Assembly (NCBI GenBank): GCA_963070105.1
Contig: OY718806.1
Location: 5,849,865-5,913,864 of the forward strand
Origin: Litomosoides sigmodontis
Lineage: Eukaryota > Nematoda > Chromadorea > Rhabditida > Onchocercidae
Reading direction: 5' to 3'
DNA length: 64,000 bases
Shown: positions 12,919-62,661 of the stretch, piece after piece
How positions within the stretch are numbered: the first letter of the stretch is position 1
How the letters are laid out: each line of letters begins with the position of its first letter
Position numbers and translations under genes: made by a program
Notes under the pieces: generated by a model
The model's input: the letters and a program-made list of their open reading frames with translations, nothing else
What the model was told of the DNA's origin: nothing
Databases searched by the model: none

Positions 12919-16123
<3,205 letters not shown>

Positions 16124-23880: not shown

Positions 23881-23995
23881 CATAGCTTAGCAAGCCACAT
23901 AAACTTGGGGAACCGTAAGAGCTCAAGTATGATGAGTACTTGAACTTCAAGATCGGTCTTTGAATAATTTCCACTTTATGGTAAAGTCAAGCTGC

Positions 23996-24335
23996 CTTGT
24001 ATGGTTTTAGTGATAAGATGTATGTCCAACGGATGTGAAAAAGATGCAAGATCTCCATATTCAGATAAGTCGGTCTGAGTTTGTCCTTTGCTCACTCCTT
24101 GTATTACACGCCATCCACCACCTTAAAATCATTTTGGACATTGCAGCACATCTGGTTATGCACGATTTGTTGATCAAATATCATTGAAATTTCTAAGTTA
24201 GAAAACTTTAGAAGCTTTTGTCACTTAAGCGATAAATGGTAATTTACCAAATCTAAGTTCCCAACGACAAAAAAGGCGTTGTTCGGGGAATCCAGATGCA
24301 CTTTCAATCTCACCGATAATGTGCACCTCGGCCAT
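23996..24335 (-). pseudogene. B9D2: Truncated duplicate of B9D2 (exons 1-2 only)
   Basis: Exact copy of B9D2 exon 1 (24335-24248, starting [10 protein letters not shown]) and exon 2 (24121-23996, containing KGQTQTDL and [13 protein letters not shown]). The sequence leaves the gene inside intron 2 at 23881, and exons 3 and 4, which encode the GWP...GYG half of the B9 fold, are absent. Frames and splice sites are undamaged, so transcription is possible, but the product would lack more than half of the domain unless spliced to something downstream. Perfect identity means a very recent duplication, gene conversion or an assembly artefact. Confidence 0.85.
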
Positions 24336-24378
24336 TTACTTCTCCGGTATCATCCCCCTCCAGCTTTCTTCTATCAGT

Positions 24379-24392
24379 GTCACCATAGCGAC
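24379..24392 (-). promoter_or_regulatory. X-box in truncated B9D2 copy
   Basis: Minus-strand GTCGCTATGGTGAC, identical to the element in front of the complete B9D2 gene and fitting the RFX/DAF-19 consensus RYYNYYWWRRNRAC at every position. It starts 57 bases upstream of the copied ATG. Confidence 0.6.
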
Positions 24393-24663
24393 AACAACGC
24401 GTTGCCATTCTGCTTTTTACGTGTACTACGCGAACAGCTCAGGATCGCTTGAAATGCATTCGCGACACAGCGAAGTCATTTTGCTTAGTCGTAACTCTTC
24501 ATCCAATCAACCCAGGTCAGCCCCTCTTCAACTTTACATTGAGCCCATTGAATTGTCGCTCCCCTAAATTCTATTTCCATAAGCGAAGAGTACTATGCAA
24601 AACACGGACATCAATCAGCTCTTAAAATGCATTTTATTCACTTTTTTGTTATGTAACAAAGCG

Positions 24664-25243
24664 CTACCGGGACATCATCCCACTGGAAAAATTTTTTAAA
24701 GCAACAATACTTTTTAGCATTACGACCAAAACTATAATTAAGTATATCCCAATTGAACATACCGGAAGAACACAGTTTACCTTGCTAAACATTCCACTGT
24801 TTTTCCTAAACCATCATCAGTAGGATCGTTCCCAAGATATCCTGATGATGGACAGTATTCATAAAAGTATAAACGCATTCGAATGTGATGGGATCTTGCT
24901 AACAGAATGAATACAACGGGAAATAAACCGTATAACAAATATTTAACGGAATTGTTGTCATTCATGGTCACCTCATTACATCACGCAACAATCACACAAC
25001 TGCTTGTGAACAGAACAGAGTCTACTATCTCAGACGTCTAGTGCTGCTCGCTCAGGTTCGAACACCAGAGGCATACATAAATCAAGGCTAATTTCATTCG
25101 AGGATCGATTTTTAGCAAAGCATTAATTTTTTGAGCGATATGAATACCGCGGATCAAAGTTGTGCTTTTCTCCATGATATTATTGAACTGTGAATTAATC
25201 ATGACTTGTTCAAGTTTTTCACCACATCTATTTCGTACACTAC
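24664..25243 (-). CDS. Putative small membrane-protein gene fragment, unknown family
   Basis: Not recognised. Three minus-strand exons join in phase: 25243-25077 (with EKLEQVMINSQFNNIMEKS), 24971-24781 (with hydrophobic YLLYGLFPVVFILLA, a likely membrane segment, then YCPSSGYLGNDPTDDGLGKT) and 24682-24664, which gives SGMMSR and a TAG. Splice signals are CAG|G, AAG|GTAAAC and TTTTTCCAG|T; the acceptor before 24971 is weak. The last base of the stop codon (24664) is the first base of the duplicated B9D2 block, and an AATAAA on this strand (24638-24633) lies inside the block. So the present 3' end is partly built from duplicated DNA and the original gene may have been cut short. An ATG at 24965 could be an alternative start. 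Confidence 0.35.
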
Positions 25244-25252
25244 CTGTCAATA

Positions 25253-27210
25253 TAGGTGTAAAAAATTAAAATAAAATTGGAAACCTCCACACTGAATTCA
25301 AATGCATGATTACGTTTTAGTTTTCAACTTGCTATTGCTGAACATGGCAAGGAACAATAATGACTGAATGTAATTATGAATTCAGGTATCAATGATATCA
25401 ATTAAGTTTGCTCAACAAATAAAATTTGTTTCTTCCACGAAATTACAATTTTATTTTTTCCAAAATGAATTTTCTAGTGCTACAGTGAGGAAATTACCGA
25501 TTCTTTTTATGGCGTTCGTTCAGTAAAAGCATTTTAAGCAGTTAATTAGAAGAAATTTGCCTTAAAAACATTGAAATGAGCACATTTAATTGAACAAATA
25601 AATTCAGGACAGATATACATGACGTTAAGAATAGCATCATCCATTCATATACATACATTGAAAACATAAAAGATCTTTGGATCTAGTATAAGTTTAAATT
25701 ATCGGTTGGAAGTATTTTAAGAAATTTGGCTCAATAAAAAGTTTAGTGAGTGAATAATAATCACTGCAAGAATATCAATGATAAGCAAAAATCGCTTCCA
25801 ATGATAGTGAAAAAATTAGAGTGATTTGTCGATAAAAAGACAATGTATAAAGCGAAGCTATTGAGAAACTCGTATTTTGAAGCAAATTATGATTATGAGT
25901 AGTTTCGCAATGATTAATCGTAGGTCAGCAATTTGATTTATTAGCGAACACGTCACGTTTGTGCATTACTGCATTGTATGTTAAGCACAGTCGTGGATCA
26001 TCTTGTAAGAGATGAAAATCTAAAGTAAAAAGGAAACTTTATTTGATTCACCCGTAGTTAATTTAGAAGCAAAAATGCATCATTTGAAGAAATGAAAGTA
26101 TTAATTTTTAATTTAAAATATTTTGCGCAGATAATAACAGGTTGAATGCCAAGCTAAGACAGTTACAAAACGCTTGAAGTCCGTCATTTAAATATATTGC
26201 AGGTTTCAGTCGATAGCAACATCTCCATGATAAGTAAGCAAAAGAGCATTATAGGGCATGAAAGTTAACGATCTGCTAAGAGTATCCAATTGTGTGTGTG
26301 CCCAGAAATTTTGTTCTTTCACCGTCACAGATATTTCCAGAAAGTTTTAAGATCTACATTGAATGATTTGCAATTAATTCAGATGTACATTGCTCTGGTG
26401 TTTGCGAATCGGTGGATAGGTTAGATTAGAGTGCTAGCTTACTTATGACTTCACACGCTGAATTTCTTAATAATACAGTACAGCGACTTCCTTCCTACTG
26501 TTTTGCGAAACATACAGTTGTGAAATAAGTAATTAACATTTGTCGGAAGTAGAAATAGTAACGTTGCTGAAATCCTTCCTTATGAAACCCATTTGCAAAA
26601 TGATAAATAATGATAAAAAGTAATTATAAAAGGAAGAGGTTAGAAGCGCATTTATTAATTGTGGTCCAAATTGAGAATACGAAGATAATTTAAGGCTTAA
26701 AATTGAGGAAGATTGAAAGAAAAAGAGAAAGAAGAGAGAAGGAGAGAGAGAGGAGGGGAGATGAAGAGAGAGATGGCACAGTAGCTACTGGCAGAATGAA
26801 GAAATGCTGCGGAAAGCGGACTAGTTTCGGCACTGATTGCTGGATAAAAACAGATGGACGGATTAAATGATCTGTGGATCTCGTCGTCGTCGTCGTCGTC
26901 GTCGTCGGTCCGAATTCGCAATAACACTGATTGATAGTCTTCCTCTAATTATCGACCGTCATCAACCTACCGCCCTTTCCTTACTATTTCTGCACTATGC
27001 ACTGCTATGGCTGTTCAGTGGCACAGAAATGTTACCTTGAATGAGTGAAAAGGGTGCCTACGTATGAACGTACCGCACATGGAGGGAACTGTATGTGTGT
27101 GGCAGTGATATTCTCTTCCGCAACAATTTCGAATTAAATCAATTTTATAGACAGTATATCACCGATGATTGATAATTTAATAGAGAGGTAGATACCATGA
27201 TTAATGAAAT
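25253..27210. other. Intergenic, AT-rich; purine tract and CGT repeat near right end
   Basis: No gene recognised. GA-rich strand bias at about 26705-26775 and a trinucleotide run at 26881-26907 are the only clear structures. Confidence 0.5.
26881..26907. repeat. (TCG)n trinucleotide microsatellite
   Basis: About nine tandem TCG/CGT units. On the minus strand they would read as poly-Asp in one frame, with no support for real coding. Confidence 0.95.
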
Positions 27211-28037
27211 CTATTTCAACCTGATCTCATTGTTATAGTCCATTTTAGATTGCACTATCCAAGTCGATGAATAGTTCAGTTCGTTCCGCTCACTAACTGG
27301 AAACACTCGACCCCGTTCGACAATGAAGTGCAGATGCAATTCTTCAAAGAATTGCATGAGGTTTTTTGTGTTCTGTTGATGGTTAGCTTAAAAAAGTAGA
27401 TATAATGGATTGGGCTATGCAACATTCTTACAGAGATAAATTTCGGAAGGATAAGGATAAGGTTAAGCACAGAAAACAGTCTCTTGAATAATAAAAAATG
27501 AAAAATAAATAATGCTAGCATTATCATCCACAACCTTCCTTCTTTCGTCTACTGCACTTCTCATTTTAACTATGTTAAATCTGTAAGTTTGAAAGATAGC
27601 AGAAAACCTAATTACATACCATTCCGCCGACCCGAAAACAACTTACCACTTCGAAAATATAAAAACACTGAAATTAAAGATCTTCCCACTGATAACTTCT
27701 GCCTTTTTTTTTAAATCGTGCTGAAGCAAAGCTGTTTTGGTGTAAAATTTATAAGCAGCAAGACAAAAAACAGCTCGCTCATCTCATCCGATATTTTCAC
27801 TTACGTTCGCCCGTCAGCTCCATCTTAAAAGATGGCATAGTACGTATTAAATATCGCTGCAAACCACTTACCATGAAGGTTTTCAACAGTGAGTAGTAAA
27901 AGTTGCAAAATTTTCATCTCATTATCAACACGAGTCACACAACTGCCTTTCGCAAGAAAATTTCGTGGCGGATAATCCAAATGACAAGGTGTTTTTGCTT
28001 CTTCTTCTTTCCCAGCAGTGATAAGCAGAGATGAGGC
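27211..28037 (-). CDS. Putative 3' exons of an unidentified gene
   Basis: Not recognised. Three minus-strand exons join in one frame: 28037-27872 (with PPRNFLAKGSCVTRVDNEMK and LQLLLLTVENLH), 27667-27620 (VFLYFRSGKLFSGRRN) and 27386-27211 (with ELHLHFIVERGRVFPVSERN and YSSTWIVQSK), ending in TAG at 27213-27211. The acceptors CCTTAG|G, TTTCAG|T and TTTTAAG|C and the donors G|GTAAGT and G|GTATGT are good, and all phases agree, giving about 128 open codons. No domain is identified. Further 5' exons (perhaps from about 28.2 kb) were not fixed. Plus-strand frames are also open over parts of this stretch, so the strand is not beyond doubt. Confidence 0.4.
27334..27357. repeat. Near-perfect palindrome
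   Basis: ATGCAATTCTT and AAGAATTGCAT are an 11-base inverted repeat separated by two bases, inside the last putative exon of the unidentified gene. It makes both strands read MQFF-like peptides. Confidence 0.8.
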
Positions 28038-29607
28038 CTAAGGCAGAAAAATAAATCCTTCTGATTTATTAGTTTCGCCAATATCCGTGATGCATTCTTC
28101 ATCTTAAGGAAAAGTAAAAATGGATCCAGGCGAGTGACTGCGAAAAAATAAGTTATCATTTATTAACTTACAATGAAGTGATGAAGAAGTGTGGTGGAGA
28201 GCACACTTTCCTACGTCGCTTCACACCTGCAGCACTTGGCGCATGGTTTCACCAGAGTAATTGAGAAAGCATGTGAGTTGGCCCGGAATGACTGTTGTAA
28301 TTTTCAGCATAAACGAGAGAAAATTGACCTTTCATATTTGTTTTCCAATGTTTCTCAAAAGGGGGAAAGTGGGCAAACTGAAATATCTGCGAGGGTTCAA
28401 AATGCTACAAGTCTTACAGCAAACGAATTTTCAATCCCAACTGGCAAACCTCTAAAAGCTTGGAATCATTTAAAAGTTTCGCATATTTTTGATTTTGCTG
28501 TTCAGAATAACTAAGGGTTTCGTTGCACTTAGAGTAACTTGTTTCATTTTCTGTTTCCTTGCACGTTTTTTCATTTGGTCTTTTTTAAAACTATTTTAAG
28601 GCGAACATTTTGCAAGAGACTGTGTACTGGAAACACTACATAGTCGAACTTACCTAATACAGGAAACCTGTCATGGAACAGAATAAATGAAAATGAATAT
28701 CAAAAACTTTTGACTGAAATGTATTCGTGCTTTTTACGAGTTATAAATAATGAAAATTGAGCGGATGGAACATATATCGAGAATAACGAAATAACCGTTA
28801 TGAATCAATGATTGATGTTCATATATATCTTCCTTCACACTGACGAATCACCTCTCTTTCCGAGCTAATCTACGAAGCATTCTCAATTGTTCAAACGTCG
28901 CAGTCACTCTTCGTATTTTCTGCTTTTTAATTTCGATAGATCGAGCTGAATGCTTAAAACACTGCCACCGTGAGCCTGATTCGATATAATGTCTAGCATG
29001 GAGAAACACTGTTCAGACTGCACTCACTATCTTCTTGAACTGAAAACAACTCATAGTTGCTTGTAAAAGCGTCCTGATAATTTACACTTTCTTGTATCTA
29101 ATCAGGTTCTCTTTCACATAAATCACAACTTACTGACTTCAATGCATTTTCCTTATACGTGAAATGCGTGTCAGATGCAGCTCGTCAGAATCTGCTGTTT
29201 TCTTATTGGTGCATTTAATCTAAAATCATTTCATAGAGGTGGAGGAAGTGCTCTTTTACCATAGCTATTATCGCCAATCGCAATATGCTAATTTACAGTG
29301 CAGGAAAAAAAGTGATCAACAGAATGGTCGTTGATGAACGAGGTGCACAGCATGATTAGCATTCTAAAAAATGCAAATTCAGGGCTGAACAGCAATATCG
29401 GTCTTTTCGTTGTGATCTTTATAAATCCTTTGACAGTCGTTGATGCCTTACTTCAACAGTTTTCGTGATCCGTTTTCCCAATGTTTTTATTAATAGTTCC
29501 CTAGTCAATGGGTGTCAAAAACTCTACCTTAAATAAACGCTACAGTGTAGTTGATGCGTGAATTTTTACACAAATAATATATAATTCAACGTATAATCTG
29601 TATTCAG

Positions 29608-29761
29608 CGGTACTATTCGCGATTTGTTCCAAAGTATTGATGAAAATTTTGCAGTTGAACAGGACTTTATGATGAGATTATCCGGTTATGCAGATCTTTA
29701 TGCTAATGTCTACTTGGATGATGACGGGACGGAATGCTCAAACAGCGTTAATGCTATCTGA
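29608..29761 (+). other. Candidate terminal exon, unknown gene
   Basis: After a good acceptor (GTATTCAG at 29600-29607) the plus frame is open for 50 codons to TGA at 29759-29761. The peptide has balanced, protein-like composition (RDLFQSIDENFAVEQDFMM, then YLDDDGTECSNSVNAI) and lacks an initiator Met. No in-phase upstream exon was found. It may be the last exon of a poorly conserved gene, or chance. Confidence 0.25.
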
Positions 29762-32700
29762 GCTACCATTCCTATTTTTGCGTATAGGTCTGCAGTCAAG
29801 CAAGGTTGACATGTCGGAAAAATTGCACTCATAATTAATAAAACTATATGGTGACAATATTTACGAAATTTCTCTTAATTAGCCTGCACATAGCAATTGC
29901 TTGACCATTTTCAACACAAGAAGCACTTGCTGTTCGAGAATCCAGAATTATAACACGAGTGTATTAAGTGGAATTCAGCATCATTCCTTCGTAACAGTAG
30001 AAAGCAACATTTGCCATTTTAGAAAAAATGCCGTCGTAAAAAACGCAAACACTAAGTTATTTCTTAACTGATAATGTCAAGAGGTCTGTTAAACAGAATT
30101 TGAGACCACTCATTAAATACGCTGCATTCGAATTCTGAATTCTTTCACATTATAGGCTTTGAAAATTGCATTTCTGAAACTGATTCATTGGATTTGAAAA
30201 CGTTTTGAAGTTGTCTTGCTTTCCAGAGTTGCTTCGTAACCATTCGTAGAGCAGAAAAAAGCACAAGGACTGCAGAAAAAGGAAATCATAAGAACAACAA
30301 TCAAACTTCATGAAATCAACAGCTATGTCAAAAATTTCATGCGGTCATGTTTGTTGAGTGATATTTCAGAAGAAAAACTGTGTTCTCGAGCATCTTGAGC
30401 TTATGAGTACCCCACACTACTATGCTGCTTTTACATGAAAACGTGATAAAATCATTACTGATTACACGTTGATTAAGTGTTCTCCTCTCACATACTACGC
30501 ACGGTTTTGGACGAGACGGAGGACGTGTTCTAGACGGTGACGTTATGATACGTATTTGAGATTCTCACCATGTTGTGCCATTGTTCGACAGATAGGTGGA
30601 ACAGAAGAGGACAGGCAGCATTTTCGACTGTAATGCGATGCCATCGTTTATTTCACACCACCCAAACGGAACTGCCCTCTTCTCCTGCAAATCAGCAGCG
30701 TATTGCTCATTTCTTCTTTTTAACTATTCAAATATTTTACCTTTAGTAAATTTAATTACTTGTTTAATTCAAAGGACAGGAATTGACCTTAAAATGCATT
30801 TTTGTTTCTTGGAAATTTTATTCTTTCTCAAGTGCGATTATAAATGATTAATCATCAGACGTTCAAAATTGATTTTGGATAACCCTTTGCGTGCATTCAA
30901 ATGGTTAGCCATAATTTCAGCAAGAACCGTTCTTTAAACTTAAATTCACAATGCGTCGTTTTTTACGTCCGTTTAATGCTTTCAAGCCTGAAAATTAGAC
31001 ATATTGATGAAATACTGCTGCTATGTATGCCTTTTAATTAACATTTTTTGGAAAACAGTGCTCATTTCTGACTAAGTTTCGGCATGGAATAAATTTAGAA
31101 AAAGTGAGAGTACATAAGAATTTCATTTTAATATGCATTTGCTCCTTTTAGCAAATGGAAAATCAAGGAGATCAGTAGTACATACTTTACGTTAGGTAAT
31201 CCTGCTAATCAAAGCATTATTGTTCAGAGTTTCATGAATTCGTTGTTAAACTGACTAATGTTTAGCAACGAATTCTAATGTCAAGTTTCAGCTAGTCAGG
31301 TAAAATGTTCGTAGTACTCTGAGCTAACTCGATTAGCGTCTGAAATTTCCTATTATTGGTTTTTCTTCAAAAGTAGTCCGCTTTTTCTGCTTTTTCTTTT
31401 CCATATACACATAAAGCATTTTTACATCGATGGGCACATAGCCAATCCTACGTTTGAGCACTTGTAACTTACCCTGTAGCCCCAAAATTGGAAAACTCTT
31501 AGGTTAGTTGGTCGGAGTCGACGGATATTTTTCTTATGATTTCTTGAAAGAAGTCTTGTATTCTTCCCCGTTTCTCAGGCCCTTTCTCATTGACAGCTAT
31601 GTGCAGGACGACTTTTCATAACTGTTCAAGAGCTAACCACAACTTGGTTCAGAAAAGTCTAGATTATACTGTAAATGTAAAAAACGGTAATGTCACAGAA
31701 AGTTATGGTGGAAGTTTCTTTGAAATTTTCAGAAAATGACTTTTTGAGAAGAAATTTTCTTTCCCTTTCTCTATTTCTGCAATGGTTGTGCATATCCGAG
31801 TTAGTCTTTTTGCAGTTTAACGTTCGGTCATTCCATCCTTCGATAACCTTGAAGATCAAGGTACTACTACAACAGAGATATCAGAAGTGACGAAGGCCGG
31901 CGAATACTGCCTGTCTCCTCTCCTCTTTTCCTCATCTACCTTATTCGTCGCAATTTACGCCTTTTTAGAAATGTTGGATAGACAGCACCTATTGTTAATG
32001 TTGTGATAAACCGTTAGTTTCTGTTTTCTACGATTGAACCTGGAGAGCTGATGGCATCTGGAAATGTTGCAGCTGAGAGGCTCTTCTGTAGTTGAGTGAA
32101 GCGCAGAAAATGCGTGTATGATTCATGCGCGATTGAATGCACGCTTCCAAGAGAGACAGACTTCGCTGGCTGTCTTGTTAATTGAGGAGAGGAAAACGTT
32201 GGAATATTTCATAAAAGTTGTTTGCTCAATGATGGCAGCAGTCATCAGAGGCAGTGGCGGCACAATGCAGATAGATATGAAGCCTCAACAAACAATGCGT
32301 CGGTCGGTGGAAAGGAAAGCACTTGTGAATCATCACGGCACACATGTTTTAGGGATGGCTTCACATGAAAGCAGGAATCCACTGCTCAGTGCGCACCCAC
32401 CTTTTCAATGATTCCTTTTTCGCACATCTGCTTTTGGGGTATTTCTCCTTTCTTGAGAAGACCTGATTCGATTAGTTGCTTCATCAGGCAGGCCTCTCTG
32501 CAGCGTTTCTCACACCACGTTATTTTTGACCCTTCTATCGCATTAAACTTTGATCTCGCAACACTGATCAATTTCTTTTTCTACATCTACAGAAATGTTA
32601 TCATGCTCTGCAAACACATTCAAGCATTGCTAATATTATCTATCATTTTCTTCTCCTAGCTGCGTATCTCCAATGTGTGCATCATCTGTCGAAGGAGCGC

Positions 32701-33317
32701 GTCATGGAAGGAAACTAGGAAGTGACCGCTAAGGGGTCTTATCCGTCACTTATTAGCTCCAGGTAACTCGAATGACTCAAGTGTCCACGAAACAGATGAT
32801 GTTTTTTGAAGATGTGGCGAGGAATGTGTTGGCGGGATTATCATGGCCAGGCTTTTGGAGGCAGGCAATCATCAACGAGAGGGAAAGGTGTTTTTGTGAG
32901 GGTGGTGACTGTACTGCTAGGACACACTGACCGTTGCATGTATGCTAAACATTCTTTCCTCATATCGCTGATCTGATCCAATCACTGATAAGGTCGTTTC
33001 AATGACGTTAACTTTCCTGTTATTCTGTATTTTTAAATTCTTTTTCTATAAATTAAATATAAGGTTCATAAGTATGTTATTCTGTTCATTCACGTACTAA
33101 TAAAATACAATATCTTGTTTTAATGAACAATTATTTCCTTTTCTCACACTTGAACGAACGCACAGAAGTGTTTAAAAAACGGAGCTTGGGTAATTTGAAG
33201 TTTATATTCTGTCCAAAAGACTGCATAGTACACCTCACCTTTTAAAGATACGCTGAGTGACTTTGCTATGCTATTTTATATTGCGGAGCATTTCGGTGTT
33301 CAAATTTTCTTTCGTTT

Positions 33318-33325
33318 TTGTTTCA
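33318..33325 (+). promoter_or_regulatory. Probable trans-splice or 5'-UTR acceptor for GFAT
   Basis: TTGTTTCAG preceded by a T-rich tract, 34 bases upstream of the GFAT ATG. In nematodes this position usually marks spliced-leader addition. A spliced 5' UTR exon upstream is the alternative. Confidence 0.5.
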
Positions 33326-33359
33326 GTGTCAAAGGGCAAATCTAGTCAGGTTTCGCAAG

Positions 33360-37877
<4,518 letters not shown>

Positions 37878-38902
37878 CAAACCAATAATGTGCAGCTTCA
37901 TAACTTCGAGTAAATTAAATCTAACTAAAATATTTTGAAATTCATATTCTCACTGTATAACCAATATTTCAACACTTCCGTTCACCACCTCCGTCCACTT
38001 CACGTATATATTTTACAGTTACTCAACTAAAATTTTACACGTCTCTAATATGGATTTGCAGTTGCTCAGTACTTTTTTATGAATGTTCAGCTGAGTCAAA
38101 TAAATTATTTCATACAGTTTCCCGATGAAGCCAAACATATGACCTCTGAACAACCATCTATAGACTCATCTCAAAATGACTAGCTAGCTCACTGACAACT
38201 ATTTAAGACATAATGCAGTGCTTCAAAATGCATAAACAAGCTTATTAAAGTCCACTCATTTTCTCAGAAACTTTCACTACTGCAGTAGCTACGATTAAAA
38301 TAACCAGTTGAGAAATCACTGAACACAGAAATCATAAAGCTTTTGTAACACTTTTAAAACACACTCTTTACAATGCATTTACAGTAGCTAACAGAAAATA
38401 TAAAATTAGCGAGTGCACTACACAACGATGGTGCATCCCCTTTAACCTTATCTACTTTCCTCAACTCCTTTTCTTCTGGCCTAAATTTGATCGTAGGAGG
38501 CCACAAGCCACCTCAAATCAAACAATCATAACAATAATACTGGTCACAAAAATAAAGTGATAATAATGGGGTTTCAAAACAATAATGTTAAAACAATACA
38601 GGACTGTCTTTAACCACTTGTAAATCAAAAGCAAAAGGGAGAAGTTGCTATACGAGTTCAATGAGTTCTAATCAAATATATCCGTTTAACTGATGCCTAA
38701 CTACGTGGATACAGGTGTTTTGATAATTTACCTATCCTAATCAAGATAACACCGCCAACATCAAATGCAATCCCAAGCCGGAGGACTCAAACATAATTAC
38801 ATAAAGAACCAGCCAGTAAAACTGGAAGTATCTAAACATTATTAGATATAAGCAAACAAAGACAAGGAATGAGACGGGGCCTGCCAAAACATGAACGAGT
38901 TA
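37878..38902. other. Convergent intergenic region (GFAT / helicase 3' ends)
   Basis: About 1 kb between two 3' ends, with no coding potential seen. It holds both 3' UTRs. Confidence 0.6.
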
Positions 38903-41900
38903 TCAATCATCAGAGTCACACAAGTCGATCACCTCACTGGGAACAAATGAATTCTGCTCATTTCCAGCCTTATCTGAAATAAATTTGTCAAACAACATAA
39001 TTGAAAAGTTCATTGAGTACGCCTGTTTAATTGTGCCTGAATAATATTTAACAGTACGAATTAAAGTCTAAATTTATTATAAGGACCGACATGTCGGCTT
39101 GTCATAGGCTGAACCACGAGCATCATAGACATCACCACGCAATGATCGGATGAAAACTCCACTCGGTAAAGTGACTAGCCAGCATCTCTCATGAAGCGCA
39201 ATTTTTCCCTTTTGTCCAGGACAGGTTAGGCATGGAAGCTCCATTTCTACAGAAAAAGAAAATCATCAGCAAAAATTGTAACAAGACCGGATCTTCAGTC
39301 AAACATTTCTTTATTCAAGCACAAGAACATACCAGCTTCACTGATGATCTGTACAGCATGTCCGTTAAGTTGTTCATCAGAATTTTCTGTAGATTCCTGA
39401 CTCGGTTCCTCCTGACTCTGTGAATTTTCTTCAGTGCGTTGAAGAACCATTGCCATTGGTGTTGATTGAAGCGGAGTGTAAATTTGCTGTCTAAAAAAAT
39501 GATTTATTATTTTAGGCCCTATTACAGCAATCCTAACGTTGTGAAAAATTTTATAATTTACGGTGTCGAAGGCCACATCCTTGGGAACTGCATTCGTGGA
39601 CCGTCAAATTCATTACTACCTCGACCAACAACACTACGTGGTGTCCACTCATAATCAAAATCTCCATTTTTGTAGATCTGTTTTTCTCTTTCATAAAGCA
39701 TTCTGGCTTCGAGTTTCTCTTCCTCGCTTAATCGATCTTCTCTTTCCATCATCAGGCTTTCGTGCAAGAATGGGATCTGATAGAAATCAAAATCATAAAT
39801 CTGATTGACAAACAAATACTAAAACATCTGATGTCACTCAGTAAATGAGAAAAACTAAGAGGCTATTTTACTTGAGCAAACATTTTTGAATGAGATAAAG
39901 CTGTCATCCAAAGCAACGCGTCATCAATTTGCCAAGTGGTTACATTCCAATCTTCTGCAACCACATCAAGTGCCTCCTAAAAATAATTCCCGATATCACG
40001 TACAAAATAAAACATTGAGGCAAACATGAATTATACCCAACAATAGTTATGGTAATTTCGAATTATACTCTTATGAAATCCAAGAGCAATAAGCACCAGC
40101 AATATCTTACGTCATAGACAAGAAGCTGTTCCAATTCACTCTTTGTAATGTCAATGTCCATCTGCTTATCATCCACAACTCGCTCTACAAGTATAAATTT
40201 AGAAAGAAATATATTCAAAAGTAACAAAGAAGCTAAATGTTATGATAATTGAAATGTCTAATTTACGTTGTAATCCACTCTTTCCAATTTGACGACTGAA
40301 AATCGCCCTCTCCATGCTATTGTCCGTAATCAAGCGGTACACATATGTACGTCTCTTTTGACCGTATCTATATATTCGACATACTGCTTGCGCATCGTGA
40401 CATGGGTTCCAGGAAGCATCAAAGATTATAACTCGACTTGCGGAAACCTATAAAAAAACCTTCCTAAACCAAAAGGATACAAATAATACATACAGTAGTA
40501 TATTTCATGTGATGTTTGAATCAATGGTATTTGAAATACACACTGCAGACCTTTAGCATCAACAGGCAAACGCCCCTGAAAACAGAAATTATGAAACTTA
40601 CGAGATTTATTCCAAGTGATCCAGCACGCGTTGATATAAGAAAGAGGAAAATATTAGGATCTTCATTAAATCGAGTGATCAATTTTTCTCTCTCTGTAGC
40701 TGTCGTTGATCCATCAAAACCTGCAGTTGACCTCTTATTGATTCAAACACTAATCGAGAAACCGTGTTTCTTAAATATTACTCACAGGCTGAATTAACCA
40801 TTATATTAACCAATTTGATTTTAATTAGTTTTTTAACATAAAACTAACGATAATAACTAATATTCTTCTTCCAGTGTAGCTTTTCGTTACCAATAGTTAT
40901 AGAGCTCGATGTTTCAAGAAAGTGTTCAATCCGGTTGAGAGTAAGCAAGCTCTGACTGGAAACATAAGAATTAAAGACATAAACAATCAAGACTACTGCT
41001 AGAAAAGTGGGAAGATACACGAAATTTCAATCTTACTGAAATCATTATCAAATGAGACTGTAAAAACACCTGAAGAGTAACACTTTTTCGCCACCCATCA
41101 CAGCCTGTTCAATAATGGCTAACGATACTACCATTTTGTATCCGTTCTCCAAAACGCCGGGTTTGTATTCGTGAAGAGCAAACGTAGCCTAAAAGAACAT
41201 GTTTGCGCATTTCGAATAACAATGAATTAGAAAAAAATCGTTATAAAACTGTAACTTTAATGAACTATTAAGTTCCAGAACTCTCATATTTTAGACGTAG
41301 AACACAGCGAAGAGAAATTTGAACTTACCCAGTCGTACTTAATTCCTTTATCAAGATTAAGTTCTTCAAGTAATGCATTAGCGATAGTAGTATGTTTCGA
41401 ACGAACACCCGTTTTACGAGAAATCCCATTCGCAGCGGGGTGAGATGTAGTAGCATCGTTAGTCGAGGAAAATGCTTAAAAAATTTACATCAATAAGAAG
41501 CCACAAAAATTAGCATCAAACAGAATTACATATATCAAAATGTGTTAAAACTGTTTTTAACGCAGGAAAACATGAAATTTTGATTGAGAAACCGATCAGT
41601 AACAACATACATGCTATTTGAGATTCCTCTTCCACTGTTAGAGACACATTCCCGGTGTCTTGCAAAATTATATCCAAATCATCAGCAGAGAATTTCTCGT
41701 CAAAAAAAGATTTATTATCATAACTTAAGGTATCTAACGAAGATTGCAATGTTGTCGGATCGCTTAATACAGCAGGCAACGTTGACGAGTCAATTAAAGC
41801 CAATGATAAAGTTGAATCTGAAATACTTTGGATTTATGCCACAATCAATATCAAAATATCATCTGATTACGAATACCTTCTAGAAAAATGCCTTACCCGC

Positions 41901-44900
41901 CAAATCATCTGTGACTGCTGCTGTCGTGAGTTGTATATTTTTTTCGTTAATTTCATTTCCACATTCAGTTCTTCGCTTTTGGAAAACTTCATACAAGATG
42001 TCTGGATGATTCCAAATCTTTAATAAACATACCTCTACGCTAATAACTCCCTCGAAGTTTCAGACCGGTAAGTAAAATTTTAAGAAACAATGTTTAAAAC
42101 TTCGAGAACAGCAAAACTCTACATGAAAAAAATAAACCTTTGAGCAGACAGCGAAGGCCTTAAGTGGATTGAAGACTGCGGTTCCGCTAACATTAATTTC
42201 ATTCTGTGCATATTGCAAAAATGCTCGATAAAGCATTCTCTGTATCGGGCTTTTGCGCAAGAGGACAACAAATTCGGAACTTGGCGGAAGGATATTTTTT
42301 AACAAATGATGTGTTCGCCTGCAATTTGTACTTCTCTATATTACGCAGACATGATCTGACTGTAAAAAATAAAACGTCTGCAATTTGAATTAATACCGCT
42401 GTACAAATCCTTTCAATAATTCAACAAGAATATGAGTGCGTTGACGGGCAATTTTGAGATCTGACGGCGTAGAATCAATACATAGCCCATTCCTTATTGG
42501 TTTTTCAAACATAACGCTGAATTCTTTCTTCGAACCTAGATAATGAGGTCTTACAAAATCCACCATGCAATAATATTCCATCAAATTGTTTTGCAAAGGA
42601 TAACCCGTCAACACAATTCTGCGCCTAAAAATATGTCTCATTCAGTCTGAAAAACAGAAAGTAAAATTAGACTCATAAATGTACAAAATTACCTTAATGA
42701 CCACTGAATAGTGATCAGTGAATTATAATTCGCAAATATTTGATAGATTACCTTGTCTTTATAGCGCTTAACGCTGCTGCTATGCCTGTTCTTTCATTTT
42801 TTATACGATGACCTTCATCACACACGACCAAATCAGGACCGGGATCCAATAAAGCTTCTCGGGCAGCTGCAAAAAGTTTAGAATTAGCAGCTTTACATAA
42901 ATTATAAATAATGTCCCATCAACAAGCTTATGAACAATAAATGTTTACCACACAGCGCCATTGCATCCAACTCTTCCTTTTCCAGATCAACTATTTCTCC
43001 TGTCTTTTTGTTTGGTCTTCCAGTAATTCGTTTTTTTGGTTTTATTTGCACCAGTAAACGAAACATATCATAACCAATTAATAAAACTCCTCCTTCTTTA
43101 TGCCAATTTTCTGAATAACAATGGAACAGAAAAATCATTTAATGTTCGCTTTCTAAGTAGTTACTTTTCGGCACTTCCATGTTCCTCCATAGATTGTCTG
43201 CTTATTCGTTACTACATCACTGCTTTCTTCAGCATTTTATAACCGAGAATTAATTTTCATATCATTAGAAATTTTAATACGACAAAACTGTCCAACATGC
43301 TCTAACACTAATTCACTTAAAATATTTAAAAATGAAATATAAAAACAAACGTAGCAATTCTGCGCGTTGCTCATTTGTCTTCACTGTATCGCCCAGAAGC
43401 CAAACTACAAATGGACGTATATTTTCTCCTGCCTCATTAATTTTGCTGGAAAAATAGTTTATAGAAGATTAATTTCGGTGAGCTGAAGAACGGTGAGGGT
43501 AAGAAATAATCCGCTAAATTAATGAACAACTTATTTCTACAGTGAGTAGTAATTACGAAAACCATGACGAAAGTTCTCACTACAACTCTCGCATACAACT
43601 GTTGCAAATTTCATTATCCATTGTTCACCTGAGAAACAACGGTAGCATTTTAAATCAGTATAAGACAAAACTAAAAATATTGAAGGAGCGGGACGACAAA
43701 ATAATACAGGAAAAAGAGGTCGCACACTAATTCCACGAGAAAGTGATGATTAAAACTTACTTGGGCAACCATTTTTCAAATTCGGAGTACCAATTCTGTA
43801 TAGTATTTACCGGTACAATGATCAGTATTTTTTTTGCACCTGTCGTGCGAACAAAAATGTCCGTAAATGTAATTATCTGAAAAATATTCTCTACCGGTAA
43901 TATTATTGCTCAAAATTTATAATTTTTCAGGTCGAAATAATTACCTGAATAGTTTTCCCTAACCCCATTGCATGCGCCAAAATACACCCAAAACCAGGTG
44001 ACTTTGCATAATCCTTCACACTTTCGATGGTATTGCCGTACCTGCAATATTTGTCGTACACTGTTTTGGAATATATGAAACAACATATAAAAGACACATC
44101 TACCAAGTAAACACCCAATTTTTTTATCAAACGATAAATCCTTTGTGATTATTGCAGAGCTGAAATGAAAATTCCATTTCTATAAGCGAAAAGGAAGACC
44201 TAGTCAAATAAAACGGTAAAGAACTAACATGAATCGTATGCCTCCTAATTGATGAGGCTGAAGCACATCATTTAGATGATAAGGGACATAGACATCTGGT
44301 TCATCAGATGTCTTTCCAGGATTCACGAGCAGTCGACCTCCCATTAATTTTTTACTTTCAAGTTCCTCTTCCGTAAGGAGCTTTTTACATAATCTTTCAC
44401 GCTCAACACGATGCAATTCATCGGTCATATCTTCATGCATTACCTGCACTTTTTCACGAAAAATTTTTCTAATATGCTAAATTAACAATTTAGTGATAAA
44501 AAAGCGATCAGCCTATATAATGGGTGCTTGTATAAAAATAAAACACACCCTGTATAATGATGACCGTCGGCGTAACGACAGTGGCTGAATTATATCTGAA
44601 AGTTTTCATCTGAGAAAACTCTGACAGTAAAACATTTGGGAAGAATCCAATGATAAGTCATATAAAATTAAGGAAAAACTTCTAATAATCATTGCTACCT
44701 CCGCCTCCGCCTGAACTCCTACTATATGCATAGGGATGCGAGCCACGAGAACCTCGGCCCCGCGAACGTCTGCCCCGCATCACTAATGATTTGTACAGTA
44801 ATGCACCGATAGGCCAAAATCAAATGATATAGATTCCAAATACGCAATTTTGCATATGTGCAGCAATTTGCATAAGCATTTTTGGAAATTTTTTCACTTA

Positions 44901-45715
44901 TGTAAATTTTAAAAAATTTTTGCACTTACGCAAATTGAACAAGCATTTTTGCAAATTTCTGAACGTATGCAAACTCATGCCTATTTTGATATTTCGTCTT
45001 ATGTATATTTTGCAAATTGCTTGTGCAGTTTGAATAAGCACTTTTTGTTTGAAGCAACAAAAAACGCATATGCAAATATTATCGTGAAAACCACAAAGCT
45101 TCAAGACGAACCAAGCAGACGACAGTCGGCATCGGAATCCTCATCGCTACTTAATTCTATAACATCATCGCCCATAAAAGATGTTGAAGGCTCCACGTCA
45201 CGCAAAGATGACGTCTTCAGACATTTAGATAGCGGTTCCAATTTCACATATAGATTTTCATCGCCACTCAACCTTTCTTTGCACTGTTCTTCTACCAAAT
45301 TACTGATTTCCGAGTCATACATTTTGGAGAGACGTTCCAGCCGCTCTCTTTCTCGCTTTTGTGCCTCAACTGCATCGGACGACACCTTTATTTCATCGAA
45401 ATCTGTTCTAAAATATAAAGACAGTGATGTGTTTCATTTTTAAAGCTGATTACACTGTTTGATGTAATTTTTATTTGAAATACAGCAGATATTTCAAACG
45501 CATTTGGTTATTTTTTGTCATGAAAACGATGGGTTCTCAAGAAATGACAAACAAATATGGCACCTGATATGTTTCCTTTTGTTGGAACGCATTTGGGTAG
45601 GTAAAGTTAATGAAATAAGTTCATTAGTGCTGTCACTTTTAGTCCCTGCTTCTATCGGATTCTCGTCTTTGATTAATTTTACTTCAAGCTTCGCTTTCAT
45701 TTCATTTTCTTCCAT
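38903..45715 (-). CDS. RAD54L2: SNF2-family helicase, RAD54L2/ARIP4 type
   Basis: DNA-dependent ATPase of the ATRX/ARIP4 branch, a nuclear chromatin remodeller. Exons 5' to 3': 45715-45564, 45407-45112, 44769-44699, 44443-44229, 44041-43945, 43876-43761, 43445-43351, 43110-42949, 42866-42752, 42624-42397, 42318-42138, 42017-41897, 41817-41611, 41474-41329, 41188-41070, 40955-40849, 40720-40602, 40447-40267, 40184-40111, 39976-39872, 39800-39562, 39490-39333, 39246-39077; about 1157 residues in phase. Motifs: [27 protein letters not shown] (Walker A), [15 protein letters not shown] (DEGH), [53 protein letters not shown]. The acidic N-terminal [11 protein letters not shown] aligns with ARIP4 and resembles a SUMO-interacting motif (inference). 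Uncertain: exon 44769-44699 has two acceptors. The 3' end may stop at 39077 or splice from an internal donor to 38973-38903, ending VIDLCDSDD. An acceptor-like TATTATAG lies 6 bases before the ATG. Confidence 0.93.
44682..44782 (-). other. Alternative helicase exon form ending in an RGG-like tail
   Basis: Using the acceptor CATTAG ending at 44783, and the phase-1 donor of exon 45407-45112, the reading gives [20 protein letters not shown], a Gly run, then SNDY and a TAG at 44684-44682. The alternative acceptor 13 bases downstream shifts the frame and continues into the ATPase domain via the donor at 44698. Both are phase-compatible. Which is used cannot be decided from sequence alone. Confidence 0.4.
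44841..45095. repeat. Degenerate AT-rich tandem repeat in helicase intron 2
   Basis: Recurring, diverged units built on GCAAATT...GCATAAGCATTTTTGCAAATTT (for example near 44870-44890 and 44935-44960, and again around 45009-45080) make up most of intron 44783-45111. The units are too diverged to give a strict period. Confidence 0.6.
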
Positions 45716-46199
45716 TCGCACCTATAATACACCTACTTGTCAAACTAGAAGTTAACCGCGGTATTTCCAAAAAATTGACTTTATGGTACCATTTCATCTC
45801 TTGACATTTTAGAGGATCTATAACTTTGTTGCATATACAAATTTCCATATAAAAAAAAGTTTACTAGTCAAACATCAATTCCGATAACGTTTTGAAAGCT
45901 GAGTTAATCCGGCAACCACCGTCCAGTTTTGCTGAAGTGCTTGTCATCTCTGTCGTACAGCACACAGCACAAAGGATCCCTTCTGAAGATCCGTGCGAGA
46001 ATTGCAGCAGAATTGTTGCGTTAATAATGTGACCCATAGTCATGTTAAGTTCGGTTAGATTGTCCTGTAGCGATTGTTAGTCTCCTCCGATAAATGTGAA
46101 GGTTGCGGTGTGGACTGAAGGGTCTGGTTGAAATTCTGGGTAAGAGAGCCGGATTTGCTTATCTCTAACTAGAAATTGTTGGTTGATCTGTTGCAGCAA
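45716..46199. promoter_or_regulatory. Shared divergent upstream region of helicase and acetyltransferase genes
   Basis: Only 484 bases separate the two start codons, which point away from each other. No coding potential is evident. Acceptor-like sites lie just before both ATGs (6 and 3 bases upstream), so the promoters must lie within this stretch or overlap the neighbouring gene. Confidence 0.55.
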
Positions 46200-50253
<4,054 letters not shown>

Positions 50254-52712
50254 AGCTGTCATTATGTATTTCCATGTTCTTTCGCAACAATATTTTTTAT
50301 CGGCTTATGTTTCAAATTTATGTTCGTCACATATTATAATGCCATCAGCAGTACTGACTATTTTTAATGAATGTTATAAAACATTGAAGTGCGGAGCGGA
50401 ACTTATTATTTTCTGAGGTACTTTGTAGAATGCTGAAAATTTTTGCCAGGCAATGGGTGTTCGGCATTCAGCAGAAAGGCAGCAATTTAAGGAGCTGAAA
50501 TTGTTTTAATAACGCAAGTATCCATTATTTGAAGATATAGAAGAAATTACCTTTGAAAGTTTGCTTGATTTATTTATGCCCTTTCGAACAAAGTTAACTT
50601 AATCGAAGGGTGAACGTGAGTACATATTCTGGTACGTGGATTTTCTGATTATTTGTATAGTTTGTCCTTCACCTGTTTAGCAGTTTTTAGTGAGTGTTTG
50701 TTATCAAAACTCGTTTTCCGGGTAGTTCTATGAAACTTAACGGTGAATAAAATGAAACGATACATTGTTAAATGTTAATTTTTATCAACAAATAAGTTTG
50801 CTCTGCTAGAAGATTTACATTATGTGGTGAACTTGTTTGTTTTAAGTCTTAGGAGGTCAATCGTTGGTTATTCTTGAACTTATACTTTCGTTATCAGTTG
50901 TCTTGATTGACATAAAATGAAGTTGATGCCAGGTTTTTTTCGTTTGTTGCTTTTGTGATATTTCACTCATAAGTGAGGGAAATTTTTCTGTACTGTAGAA
51001 GATAATGCATAATTTATTGTGTTCTTCGTTAGGTACTGATAGGTACGATGTGTAAGATAATGGGATCTCATCATCACATGTTCTTTACTTGCTGTATGGT
51101 TCACATATATAATCGTATTACCTTGTGGTTTGTATAAGATTTGTAATGTTTTTCATTTCGTGCATGTTGTGTATAGCCTTATCCATTATTTCTAATTGAC
51201 TGTCATTAGTTCGTTATTTACAGCACTTAACATTTTTTCATAATTCCTTCTTGAATTCTTTATTCATCATCAAAAGTTGGTTTTTCTGTTGCATTTGTTG
51301 CACTAGTCTTAATAAAGCTATTACTTGATGCTTATCACATAATATCACAATAAACTTATCCAGGCCTCACGTCTTCATTTTTTTGCAACGTCTGTTTCCA
51401 CTGCCAAACATCAACTCTCCATGGGTTTTGTTTTTTCTTTTTTTTTGCTTTAGGCCGTAAGCGGGTAATTTTTTGAGAAAAGAAATCTATAAAAAGTTGT
51501 AAGTTATTGGAGATTACATAATCAGTGAGTTGCTGTATACATGTCATTGCAACACAGTAGCCATGCCTTTTTTTAAAGGATTAATTTCCGAAAAGATTAA
51601 CTAAGAATTTGCTAAGAAATTTTTCTTCTTTAAGAATCTTCTTCGAGAACTAGATAAGAACTTTTTGGTTCACCGTATAAAATCTATTGTTGTATTAGTT
51701 TTTGATCCCGTTTGTTACTTGCATTTTTACGACCACGGTTTCAAAGCTTGTGCGCGAATAATTTCATTATGTAGCTACCGGATGAAATGACATTATTACA
51801 ACATCCCTGGAATCGATTTTTTACCGGGACTCTTATGAAATATCATTTACCGGGCAATTAGAAAGCATATATAAGCGGGCCAAATAGCTCATAGGTTTTG
51901 AGGCACCATCGCAAAGTGACATTTCAAATGCTCAGTGTTTGATAAAGGGTAGTTAAGTTTGCAGGTTGTTGACATTTTCTTGTGTCTTCCATTTTTTGAT
52001 GTTTAAATCGTGAAATAGCAGAAATCGCTTGCACTTTGAATAAAGAGTCTGACAGTGTTGCTGGTAACGGAAAATGCAAAGAGTCAACCACCCTCCTATC
52101 AACTTTGATTTTTGACTTTTCCTGTCAATTTTTGTTTTGCAGTCCAAAAAGACGCTGATAAGCAGTCAAATGAAGTTTCTAGGGTTAGGTGGATTTCCCA
52201 ACTAAGCAAAGGCAATATATTAAATAAAATTTTTTTCTTTCGATCTTAATACTGAATCTGAAAGGCTAATTTCGAACAGTGTAATAGGATCATATCACTC
52301 GATTCTGTGTGAAAGCTATGTCTCATCCCTGAAGTCAATGAAATGCGCAAGTGACCCTAACTTCAACAACACATGTTAATTACAGGTAACAAAAATTCAA
52401 GACACTAATAGGAAAAATAACGAATTTCCATGCAGTTTTTGAAACATGTTTGAGTTTATTTGAAAAAAACTTTAAATTTTAGTGCCATGAAATTTCCAAC
52501 TAATGGAAAGCAATATTCAATGTATTTTATACAGGAATTGATTAAAGCGAAACTTCACTTGAACACAGAATAAAGTTTTTAACGGTATCTAGGTTTGCAA
52601 GACAACTTGGACTGATTGCTACCATCCGAACAAATTCTAATGATAGTTGGTTGCAGTTAGAAGATGAATATAGCAATTTCAATCTATGTTAGTAGAACAA
52701 AAGAATGGGAAG
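50254..52712. other. Convergent intergenic region
   Basis: About 2.5 kb between the acetyltransferase and the cation transporter 3' ends. AATAAA at 50746-50751 is a candidate polyadenylation signal for the acetyltransferase. No coding exon recognised. Confidence 0.55.
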
Positions 52713-54645
52713 TTACTCAGCCCAATCACCATCGCAACGGTAATCACCGTGTACAAAAGCTCGTTCGACAAATGGCAAAACTGATATTTTTTTTGTCAAT
52801 GATTCAATGATATCATGAGTGATTTTGAGTGGCAGGTCATCGTCTAACACAATGTGCACTTCCACTGTGGCCAATGAACCAGTATGATAAACCATCACAT
52901 GATCCAGACATTTGATGTGTTCGTCGTGCTCCACACAGATCCGAATGATGCGTGATAGATTTTCCTGATCACTACGTTTACCCACCAACATTGGGATATT
53001 ATCGACTGCGTTACAAAACCACGATGAGGCGACAAATGTGCTGGAAATAAAAGGAAAGAGATTGCAAGCAGCATAAAAAAAGAGAATTTGGTAAACAAAT
53101 ACGAAATTCAAGAATTATGTTATAATGCGAATGTTTCCACCAGACACATATGGCTCCAATCGGATCAGCATAAAGCCAGTATTTGTCACCAATAAAAGCA
53201 CTAGTTAATGCGACTACACTTGTTATAATATCATTACGCTGATCCATAGCTAATGTCTGAAAATTCTTTCGTCAGTTCACTGGTCTTGATTTATATACCT
53301 CATAGCCGAATGTAGCTTTTTATAAACTGCCAAATGATCTGATTCTTTTTACTTGTATTTTCATCCCTTAATACCCATTTAAAAAAACAAACCCGTGAGC
53401 CAGGTGTGCCGTGTTTATAGCAAAATATCATCAACAGTATTTTTATGACACAAGCGATAACTAATATGCAAATAGCAGATACACTTGCATTCGGATATAT
53501 CTGCAAATGATACTTTTTCGTGACTGGCAGTACTTATACAGTCGTAATGTTCATTATTAACAGGGAGGACAAATTCGGATAAGTAAAAAGTAAAGAATTG
53601 ACAAGCAGAAACTTTTAAAATTGGCACTGAAATTGAAATTGGAACTTTCAGAAACAATTATTAAAAGTTTCAAATGAAGAGGCAACTGAATTTGTTGCTC
53701 AAAATTTGTCATTATTTACCAAATGAAGCATATCTCACACTCTTATTGATAATTGATTCAACTGATTGAATAATCATCATAATGTTGGCGACACCCATGA
53801 TGACAGAACAAATGAGGACAATGATTAGCTCTAAGCGTGCACGTCCTCGTGGATAATTGAATGTATCCGTATTATTGATAGCCCAAGTACTAATATAAAT
53901 TAATATTCCACTAATGCAATCCACAGCCGAATCGAGAAATGTGCTAAATTAAACAAACTTACAGTTCTGCAAAATTTTTTGACTCTTTAAAACTGAAATA
54001 TTTATTCGTTAGGTGATATGAGAATTTGGCATGAGCACAATATCAAACATTATGTTCTCTGAAAGATCCCCAGAAAGATTCGCCAGGTGATATGAGAATA
54101 AAAACACTTTCAATTCTTTCAAAAATTACCTAATAATAGAAAGAGAACTGGATAGTACGGACGCAAATCCATTAGCAAACAACAAAATAATGTTCGCCGC
54201 AAAAGTTATTCGTGCCAAAATGCTATTTATGTTTTGTTTTCGTTGTTCTTCGTCATTCGTCGCTTTCATTATATTTCCATTCGAGGAATGTGTGAAGAGC
54301 TGTTCATCATGGCGGTATAAGGATTGTAGACGTTCTTGGTCTTGGTTGTACTAGAATTTTGACAAATTTGTAGTCTATCATCGTGATAATGGCTTTGTAC
54401 GACTAATGGCTGATTTCTACGTAACACAAAATTCTTTGTTGTTCATATCAAAAACTTACACATATGCAAAGTACAGCACATTAAAAAAAACGTCAAACTT
54501 AAAACTCCTCACAAAAGTGTCTTTGTAACGGGAGTATTGATAAAACAATTAATCAGTATTTGATCACCTTATGGAGAAGCTTTTTGTGTTGTCTTCTTTT
54601 CCAGAACGAAGAGGATTCACACGAAAAACTATTAGTGCATCCATG
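52713..54645 (-). CDS. Cation diffusion facilitator (MTP/Mn-CDF-like), 5' incomplete
   Basis: Membrane metal-proton exchanger of the CDF superfamily. The layout (soluble Tyr/Gln-rich N-terminus, then TM bundle and C-terminal cytosolic domain) resembles the plant MTP8-11/Mn-CDF-like group, but the substrate is not proved. Exons 5' to 3': 54645-54568, 54350-54130, 53943-53739, 53500-53393, 53256-53141, 53040-52713; 351 residues in phase. Visible: YNQDQERLQSLYRHDE; TM1 ITFAANIILLFANGFASVLS; TM2 with metal-site motif DSAVDCISG; NYPRGRARLE loop; TM3 and TM4 (LICSVIMGVANIMMIIQS; AICILVIACVIKILLMIF); TM5 with DQRNDIITS, the second half of the transport site; then the cytosolic beta-alpha domain ending HGDYRCDGDWAE. 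The exon at 53943 must use donor GTGAGA to stay in phase. The start codon exon was not found; it should lie upstream of 54645. Confidence 0.88.
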
Positions 54646-61665: not shown

Positions 61666-62661
61666 TCAGCACTGAATTCCGAAACGATCAAAATTTTTCG
61701 TTATCACTGAAATGCGTAATCTGACGACGCCCATTGATACAGTATGTAATTTTGAGTGTTCATCGAGTCGCGTCGAAGTTTCATTGCTAAGTTGTAAACC
61801 TCCTCCAACGAAGTATTGCATCATTTCTTCACGCAAACCACCTTTCGGTCTCCATGTATAGCATTTCATCTATACTTTGTGAAAACCAATCAAATCAACC
61901 AAACCATTGATATAAACTGATAATGAAAAGTTAAATTTATAGTCACATGCAAATGGCTTAACCAATTACTGAAAATAAGAATGAAGAAATTACTTGATGT
62001 TCACCAGGCGAAGCTGGCAAAAATATAGACCCGTAACCATACAGCTCCTGGCGACCAAATTCATCGTAGTGCCAAACTTGTAAACTAATTGAAGGCCATC
62101 CTGAATATAAGCAACATTTCCAGTGATCTTTTTACATGCATAACTGTTACTTTGAGATTTTCTGAGACTACGACAAATCACATAGTTCTTGGTTATAAAC
62201 GCTGAACATAGCTTAGCAAGCCACATAAACTTGGGGAACCGTAAGAGCTCAAGTATGATGAGTACTTGAACTTCAAGATCGGTCTTTGAATAATTTCCAC
62301 TTTATGGTAAAGTCAAGCTGCCTTGTATGGTTTTAGTGATAAGATGTATGTCCAACGGATGTGAAAAAGATGCAAGATCTCCATATTCAGATAAGTCGGT
62401 CTGAGTTTGTCCTTTGCTCACTCCTTGTATTACACGCCATCCACCACCTTAAAATCATTTTGGACATTGCAGCACATCTGGTTATGCACGATTTGTTGAT
62501 CAAATATCATTGAAATTTCTAAGTTAGAAAACTTTAGAAGCTTTTGTCACTTAAGCGATAAATGGTAATTTACCAAATCTAAGTTCCCAACGACAAAAAA
62601 GGCGTTGTTCGGGGAATCCAGATGCACTTTCAATCTCACCGATAATGTGCACCTCGGCCAT
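61666..62661 (-). CDS. B9D2: B9 domain-containing protein 2 (transition-zone MKS module)
   Basis: B9D2 works with B9D1 and MKS1 in the MKS module of the ciliary transition zone, gating membrane-protein entry; in nematodes it acts in ciliated sensory neurons. Four exons: 62661-62574, 62447-62322, 62100-61994, 61869-61666; 174 residues against 175 in human. Family landmarks run the full length: [92 protein letters not shown] and terminal [12 protein letters not shown]. Exon 2 ends AAG|GCAGCT, so intron 2 would be a GC-AG intron; the phase (1) fits exon 3. An X-box lies 44 bases upstream. The 5' half (62207-62990) is duplicated at 23881-24664. Confidence 0.95.

What the first reader, a model, noticed from the sequence alone, without database searches (positions are those of the whole stretch)
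23881..24664. Perfect 784-base partial duplication of B9D2, 38 kb from the parent gene
Both copies appear identical over 784 bases, including introns, in direct orientation. The left copy carries promoter, X-box, exons 1-2 and intact splice donors but no exons 3-4. Identical introns imply a very recent event, ongoing gene conversion, or an assembly duplication. If real, it could be expressed in ciliated neurons as a truncated B9 protein. The direct repeats also bracket about 37.5 kb holding five conserved genes, making that interval prone to deletion or circular excision by recombination.
Basis: partly seen in the sequence, partly recalled or inferred. Interest (0 to 1): 0.75.

Follow-up and report, generated by a model that had tools for sequence, protein, structure and literature searches.

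The report
Recent partial copy of B9D2 gene
In a rodent filarial worm, the front half of a cilium gene has been copied to a spot 38 kb away; this looks like a real but ordinary young partial gene duplicate, most likely a fragment that does little.

Summary
Window 23881-24664 and 62207-62990 are identical over 784/784 bases, in direct orientation, and are the only two places found in the 65.9-Mb assembly. The genome is, by inference, Litomosoides sigmodontis nxLitSigm11.1. The parent is a complete four-exon B9D2 on the minus strand, 174 aa. The left copy holds its upstream region with an X-box-like site, exons 1-2 and 115 bp of intron 2. Its B9D2 frame ends after 77 aa and covers positions 1-73 of the 166-position B9 profile.

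Best reading: one recent copy-and-paste insertion into single-copy DNA, probably during break repair. Its edges are sharp, without diverged shoulders or obvious mobile-element ends. A review of gene duplication draws exactly this structure as its schematic partial duplicate.

An assembly artefact is unlikely: HiFi fragments averaged about 15.8 kb. A further, indirect trace: a protein made from this segment sits on a database contig of 39,103 bases, against a repeat-to-repeat span of 39,110. Expression, function and deletion-proneness are untested. Interest is low.

The parts
23881..24664 (-). Partial copy of B9D2 (784 bp): upstream region, exons 1-2, first 115 bp of intron 2
   Evidence: 784/784 identical to 62207-62990; only two places in the genome
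24248..24335 (-). Exon 1 of the copy
   Evidence: coordinates by offset from the parent; tblastn of P0001 hits 24335-23994
23996..24121 (-). Exon 2 of the copy; reading on past its GC donor the frame stops inside the copied DNA after 77 aa in all
   Evidence: profile positions 1-73 of 166
24379..24392 (-). X-box-like site (consensus recalled) of the copy
62207..62990 (-). Source segment in the parent B9D2 locus
61666..62661 (-). Parent B9D2 gene, four coding exons 62661-62574, 62447-62322, 62100-61994, 61869-61666; 174 aa
   Evidence: PF07162 182.1 bits; orthologues
62705..62718 (-). X-box-like site of the parent, 43 bases upstream of the ATG at 62661
24665..62206 (.). 37,542-bp interval between the copies, with five conserved genes and exons 3-4 of B9D2

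Best explanation
A real, recent, DNA-level partial gene duplicate. A 784-bp stretch of the B9D2 locus (upstream region, exons 1-2, the start of intron 2) was copied with its introns and inserted into single-copy DNA 38 kb away on the same chromosome, in the same orientation (copy structure shown; the event inferred). The likeliest route is aberrant repair of a break, or template switching, at the left site with the B9D2 5' region as template (inferred; no empty site could be examined). The copy keeps the parent's upstream region and could be transcribed (inferred). Lacking exons 3-4, it offers only a 77-aa fragment with under half of the B9 profile, so it most likely has no B9D2 function and will decay as a pseudogene (inferred).
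For: 784/784 identity with introns. Two places only in the genome. Both 2-kb flanks of the left copy match only themselves. Flanks of the two places are unrelated: local alignments of 400 and 1000 bases on either side are no better than 200 shuffles each. No word longer than 5 bases is shared by the two junction windows scanned, and no terminal inverted repeat shows. B9D2 and the ARIP4-like gene of the interval both list a contig of 59,082 bases in Thelazia callipaeda (P0005, P0046), which suggests that B9D2 beside that gene is the old arrangement. HiFi reads of one female, average fragment about 15.8 kb, QV 52.9. P0037 is encoded letter for letter by the segment and lies on a contig of 39,103 bases, against 39,110 for repeat + interval + repeat. 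The anatomy equals the schematic partial duplicate of PMC3449122 (passages).
Against: No reads and no related filarial DNA could be examined, so neither presence in other worms nor the empty site is shown. The break-repair mechanism has no positive signature: microhomology cannot be read without the empty site. The contig-length match was noticed after the fact and a second protein did not decide it. The two-kb flank searches skip simple repeats and very common words (note).
Confidence: 0.82

Rival explanations
1. Assembly artefact: the 784 bases occur once in the worm and were placed twice.
For: Identity is perfect, and no read could be inspected here.
Against: HiFi fragments of about 15.8 kb on average exceed the repeat about 20-fold, assembly by hifiasm, QV 52.9. 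No N in the 264-kb block around it. Haplotypic duplication would carry flanks along, yet the flanks are unrelated. The contig length of P0037 fits breaks at the outer edges of two real copies.
Confidence: 0.05
2. An older duplication kept identical by gene conversion from the parent.
For: Gene conversion is known between C. elegans paralogues and can include introns (PMC3966223, passages).
Against: No diverged shoulder on either side: Smith-Waterman scores 18-23 lie at or below the shuffled means of about 20-23, while a flank with 40% of its sites redrawn still scores 170 in the control. Conversion would have to cover the whole copy exactly to both ends. That paper reports evidence of conversion in 2% of 7,829 C. 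elegans pairs.
Confidence: 0.06
3. Capture by a mobile element (Helitron-like or terminal-inverted-repeat) that carried the gene fragment.
For: Such elements can carry gene fragments with promoter and introns (recalled).
Against: No terminal inverted repeat and no shared word above 5 bases in the junction windows; both 2-kb flanks match only themselves; two copies of the segment only.
Confidence: 0.03
4. A young functional gene: the copy makes a truncated B9 protein or RNA in ciliated neurons that modulates the B9 complex.
For: Upstream region and X-box-like site are carried along. A database gene model made only of sequence from this segment exists (P0037).
Against: P0037 begins upstream of the X-box-like site in another frame than B9D2 and fits either copy, so it looks like a spurious model and is no evidence of expression. 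The fragment lacks 102 of 174 residues, including P74 and the equivalent of G155. With no sequence difference, selection cannot be tested.
Confidence: 0.04

Closest known systems
Partial gene duplicates of Caenorhabditis elegans (structural classes in PMC3449122 and PMC2728529, passages read)
   Same: DNA-level copy with introns; break inside intron 2 leaving 5' flank, exons 1-2 and part of intron 2, exactly as in the schematic figure legend; span of 784 bp is of the order of the 1.4-kb median given for C. elegans.
   Different: Filarial worm, not Caenorhabditis; copies 38 kb apart with five genes between; no sequence difference at all.
Makorin1-p1 of mouse (5' partial duplicate, cited in PMC3449122, passage read)
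   Same: A copy of about 700 bp of the 5' region of a gene.
   Different: A regulatory role of its RNA was proposed there by its authors; nothing here shows expression or effect.
Templated inserts of polymerase-theta end joining in C. elegans (PMC4490562, passages read)
   Same: Copying of nearby sequence into a break, without an element.
   Different: Those inserts come from close to the break; this one is 784 bp from 38 kb away, so a longer-range copying process would be needed.

Membership tests
Partial gene duplicate (DNA-mediated) | Introns and upstream DNA copied along with the exons | tested here: met
   Intron 1, 115 bp of intron 2 and about 330 bp upstream of the ATG lie in the 784 identical bases
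Partial gene duplicate (DNA-mediated) | One break inside the gene, so that the copy lacks part of the reading frame | tested here: met
   Edge at 62207 lies in intron 2; exons 3-4 match the parent place only
Partial gene duplicate (DNA-mediated) | The reading frame of the copy holds no sequence foreign to the parent locus (otherwise chimeric or recruiting) | tested here: inconclusive
   The unspliced 77-aa frame ends inside the copied DNA; real transcripts unknown
Partial gene duplicate (DNA-mediated) | Copy is the derived state, absent in relatives | not testable with these tools
   No related filarial DNA is held ('It has no relatives here')
Retrocopy | Introns lost | tested here: not met
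   Introns present
Mobile-element capture | Terminal inverted repeats or target-site duplication at the insert edges | tested here: not met
   None seen; longest shared word in the junction windows 5 bases
Mobile-element capture | Flanking element sequence present in several copies | tested here: not met
   2 kb on each side match only themselves
Gene-converted older duplicate | Homologous but diverged flanks | tested here: not met
   Flank alignments at the level of shuffles
B9-domain protein (the encoded fragment) | Complete B9-C2 domain | tested here: not met
   Profile positions 1-73 of 166 only

The most novel reading that the evidence does not exclude
The insert is a freshly moved ciliary promoter: the B9D2 upstream region with its X-box-like site now sits between a DYRK-like kinase gene (minus strand, open stretch at 14780-15328, about 8.5 kb downstream of the copy; named from recall, Pfam found no family in it) and a GATase-domain gene (plus strand, about 9 kb away), and adds expression in ciliated neurons to one of them or makes a B9-kinase fusion transcript.
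Probability: 0.03. Interest if true: 0.5.

Novelty: new member of a known kind. Interest (0 to 1): 0.15.

Why it matters
It is a clean, young example of how worm genomes make gene fragments by copying short stretches of DNA with promoter and introns, here in a filarial worm and with both edges known to the base. In practice, reads, primers and expression counts for B9D2 exons 1-2 in this species are shared between two places. It answers no long-standing question by itself.

Tried and rejected
Considered and rejected: (1) Retrocopy: introns are present. (2) Mobile-element capture: no element ends, single-copy flanks. (3) Older duplicate with a converted core: no shoulders. (4) Re-integration of an excised circle into an ancestral single repeat: that locus would have lacked exons 3-4, and the Thelazia contig lengths suggest that B9D2 beside the ARIP4-like gene is the old arrangement; argued, not tested. 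(5) Hairpins at the edges: the upper edge (24664/62990) has a 7-base inverted repeat, as good as 3% of 2000 random places; the lower edge has 4 bases, as do 74%; not compelling. (6) Fusion of the copy's exon 2 with downstream exons: a narrow acceptor scan gave 5 candidates, the longest adding 72 residues at 16856; the scan pattern was restrictive and no transcript could be checked, so nothing is concluded.

Led nowhere: own-genome searches with 20,000- and 17,542-base queries did not return even the query's own place, so say nothing about other duplicates. The ARIP4 search, meant to show whether an L. sigmodontis protein of the interval lies on the 39,103-base contig, has no row named L. sigmodontis among the 120 listed of 2600, so it did not decide. 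The PDB sequence search gave 0 matches; Rfam and tRNA scans of the window 0 features. A paper search for this duplicate listed 6 of 46 papers; none of the 6 titles concerns it; that is no proof of absence.

Full report
OBSERVATION. Self-comparison of the window shows one block of 784 identical bases in direct orientation, 23881-24664 and 62207-62990. The longest exact direct repeat in five simulated sequences of the same length was 15-17 bases. In the genome of the window (65,877,608 bases, 7 contigs) these are the only two places found.

SPECIES (inferred). The nearest relatives of the B9D2 protein are filarial, the best 94% identical and named Acanthocheilonema viteae. A 75-aa database protein named Litomosoides sigmodontis (P0037) is reproduced letter for letter from this segment. 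Size and sequence number equal those of nxLitSigm11.1 in PMC10817185: 65.9 Mb, six scaffolds plus mitochondrion (seen: outline, abstract, one Results section, part 1 of 2 of the Methods).

PARENT. On the minus strand exons 62661-62574, 62447-62322, 62100-61994 and 61869-61666 join to a 174-aa protein. It matches the B9-C2 profile from position 1 to 166 with 182.1 bits. All 36 proteins found at E <= 0.001 among 58 candidates carry the same precomputed Pfam domain. Intron 2 begins with GC. An X-box-like site (consensus recalled) lies 43 bases upstream of the ATG. The consensus matches 17 times on the two strands of 264 kb, palindromic sites counted twice, so a match so near the start of a ciliary gene is suggestive, not proof. 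The genome has two further places with B9-domain matches, on C4 and at C6 4455005.

COPY. The left copy holds 329 bases upstream of the ATG, exons 24335-24248 and 24121-23996, and 115 bases of intron 2. Read on past the GC donor, the frame ends after 77 aa, still inside the copied DNA, and covers profile positions 1-73 of 166. Exons 3 and 4 match at the parent place only. The fragment thus lacks P74 and the residue equivalent to G155, where patient substitutions damage MKSR-2 in C. elegans (PMC7859701, passages). P74 is P in the parent; the second residue I equate with the invariant G154 of alignment A1.

EDGES AND SURROUNDINGS. Outside the 784 bases the two places are unrelated. Local alignment scores of 400- and 1000-base flanks are 18-23; the shuffled means are 19.8-23.5, and 60-85% of 200 shuffles do as well. 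The control, a flank with 40% of its sites redrawn, scores 170. The two junction windows share no word longer than 5 bases, and no terminal inverted repeat shows. The 2-kb flanks of the left copy match only themselves. Between the copies, Pfam hits mark five genes: GATase, SNF2, bromodomain, ZT_dimer, Thioredoxin_6; 7 of the 12 open stretches of the interval that I scanned had no hit or were non-coding. The SNF2 gene is ARIP4/RAD-26-like. GFAT, GCN5, a zinc transporter and ERp44 for the others are recalled names.

IS IT REAL. The assembly came from HiFi reads of one female by hifiasm, average fragment about 15.8 kb, QV 52.9. Reads of that kind span a 784-base repeat (inference; I saw no reads). 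The 264-kb block around it has no N. Indirectly, P0037 lies on a contig of 39,103 bases, and repeat + interval + repeat measures 39,110 here. A draft L. sigmodontis assembly, PRJEB3075, of 3,165 scaffolds with N50 45,863 exists (PMC8564745, passage), and drafts tend to break at exact repeats. Under a rough exponential model of its lengths, a match within 7 bases to one of three plausible lengths has a chance of about 0.0006. Against this: the match was noticed after the fact, the link of P0037 to that draft is inferred, and a second protein did not decide it.

AGE AND MECHANISM. With no difference in 784 bases the 95% upper bound is about 0.58-0.96 million generations for rates of 3.3-2.0e-9 per site (rates recalled). 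The event is recent in evolution but need not be a laboratory event. The simplest route is copy-and-paste during break repair, which is inferred. Templated inserts of polymerase theta in C. elegans come from close to the break (PMC4490562, passages), so a longer-range copying process is as likely.

COMPARISON. [quoted passage not shown] It lists 39% complete, 21% partial and 40% chimeric among 290 young C. elegans pairs, and 37% complete and 63% partial among 30 events in mutation-accumulation lines. PMC2728529 (passages) gives a median span of 1.4 kb in C. elegans. In long-read C. elegans mutation-accumulation lines 12 of 40 structural mutations were insertions, median 441 bp (PMC13322394, passages). 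The finding is ordinary in kind and size by these measures. How common such repeats are in this genome I could test only in one 264-kb block. There, two repeats of at least 300 bp and 95% identity occur: this one and an inverted 777-bp pair 1 kb apart.

CLAIMS NOT SUPPORTED. Expression in ciliated neurons and a truncated B9 protein are possible but untested. P0037 is no evidence of expression: it starts upstream of the X-box-like site in another frame and fits either copy. Deletion or circular excision of the interval is a fair expectation for direct repeats, but nothing here measures it. Such a deletion would remove five conserved genes and B9D2 exons 3-4, so its carriers would probably be selected against (inference).

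Noticed in passing
window 62321 (minus strand), exon 2 / intron 2 of B9D2: GC splice donor. Database models stumble here: Brugia malayi P0003 carries 34 extra residues between TKTIQ and GWPS, Wuchereria bancrofti P0012 lacks the end of exon 2 and exon 3, and L. sigmodontis P0037 runs on into the intron. An earlier count said 36; 34 is right.
   Followed up: partly
G000 C6 5934128-5934904 and 5935917-5936674 (L020 264-1040, 2053-2810): A second local near-identical repeat, 777 bp at 97.6%, inverted and 1 kb apart; elsewhere only a 96-bp match at C6 10596163.
   Followed up: partly
window 35936-36064: Perfect AT array of 64.5 units; a length-variable site inside the interval that could account for small length differences between assemblies.
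   Followed up: no
window 23000-23500: G+C-rich stretch (52%) just left of the copy in an A+T-rich neighbourhood; possibly a promoter of a gene further left.
   Followed up: no
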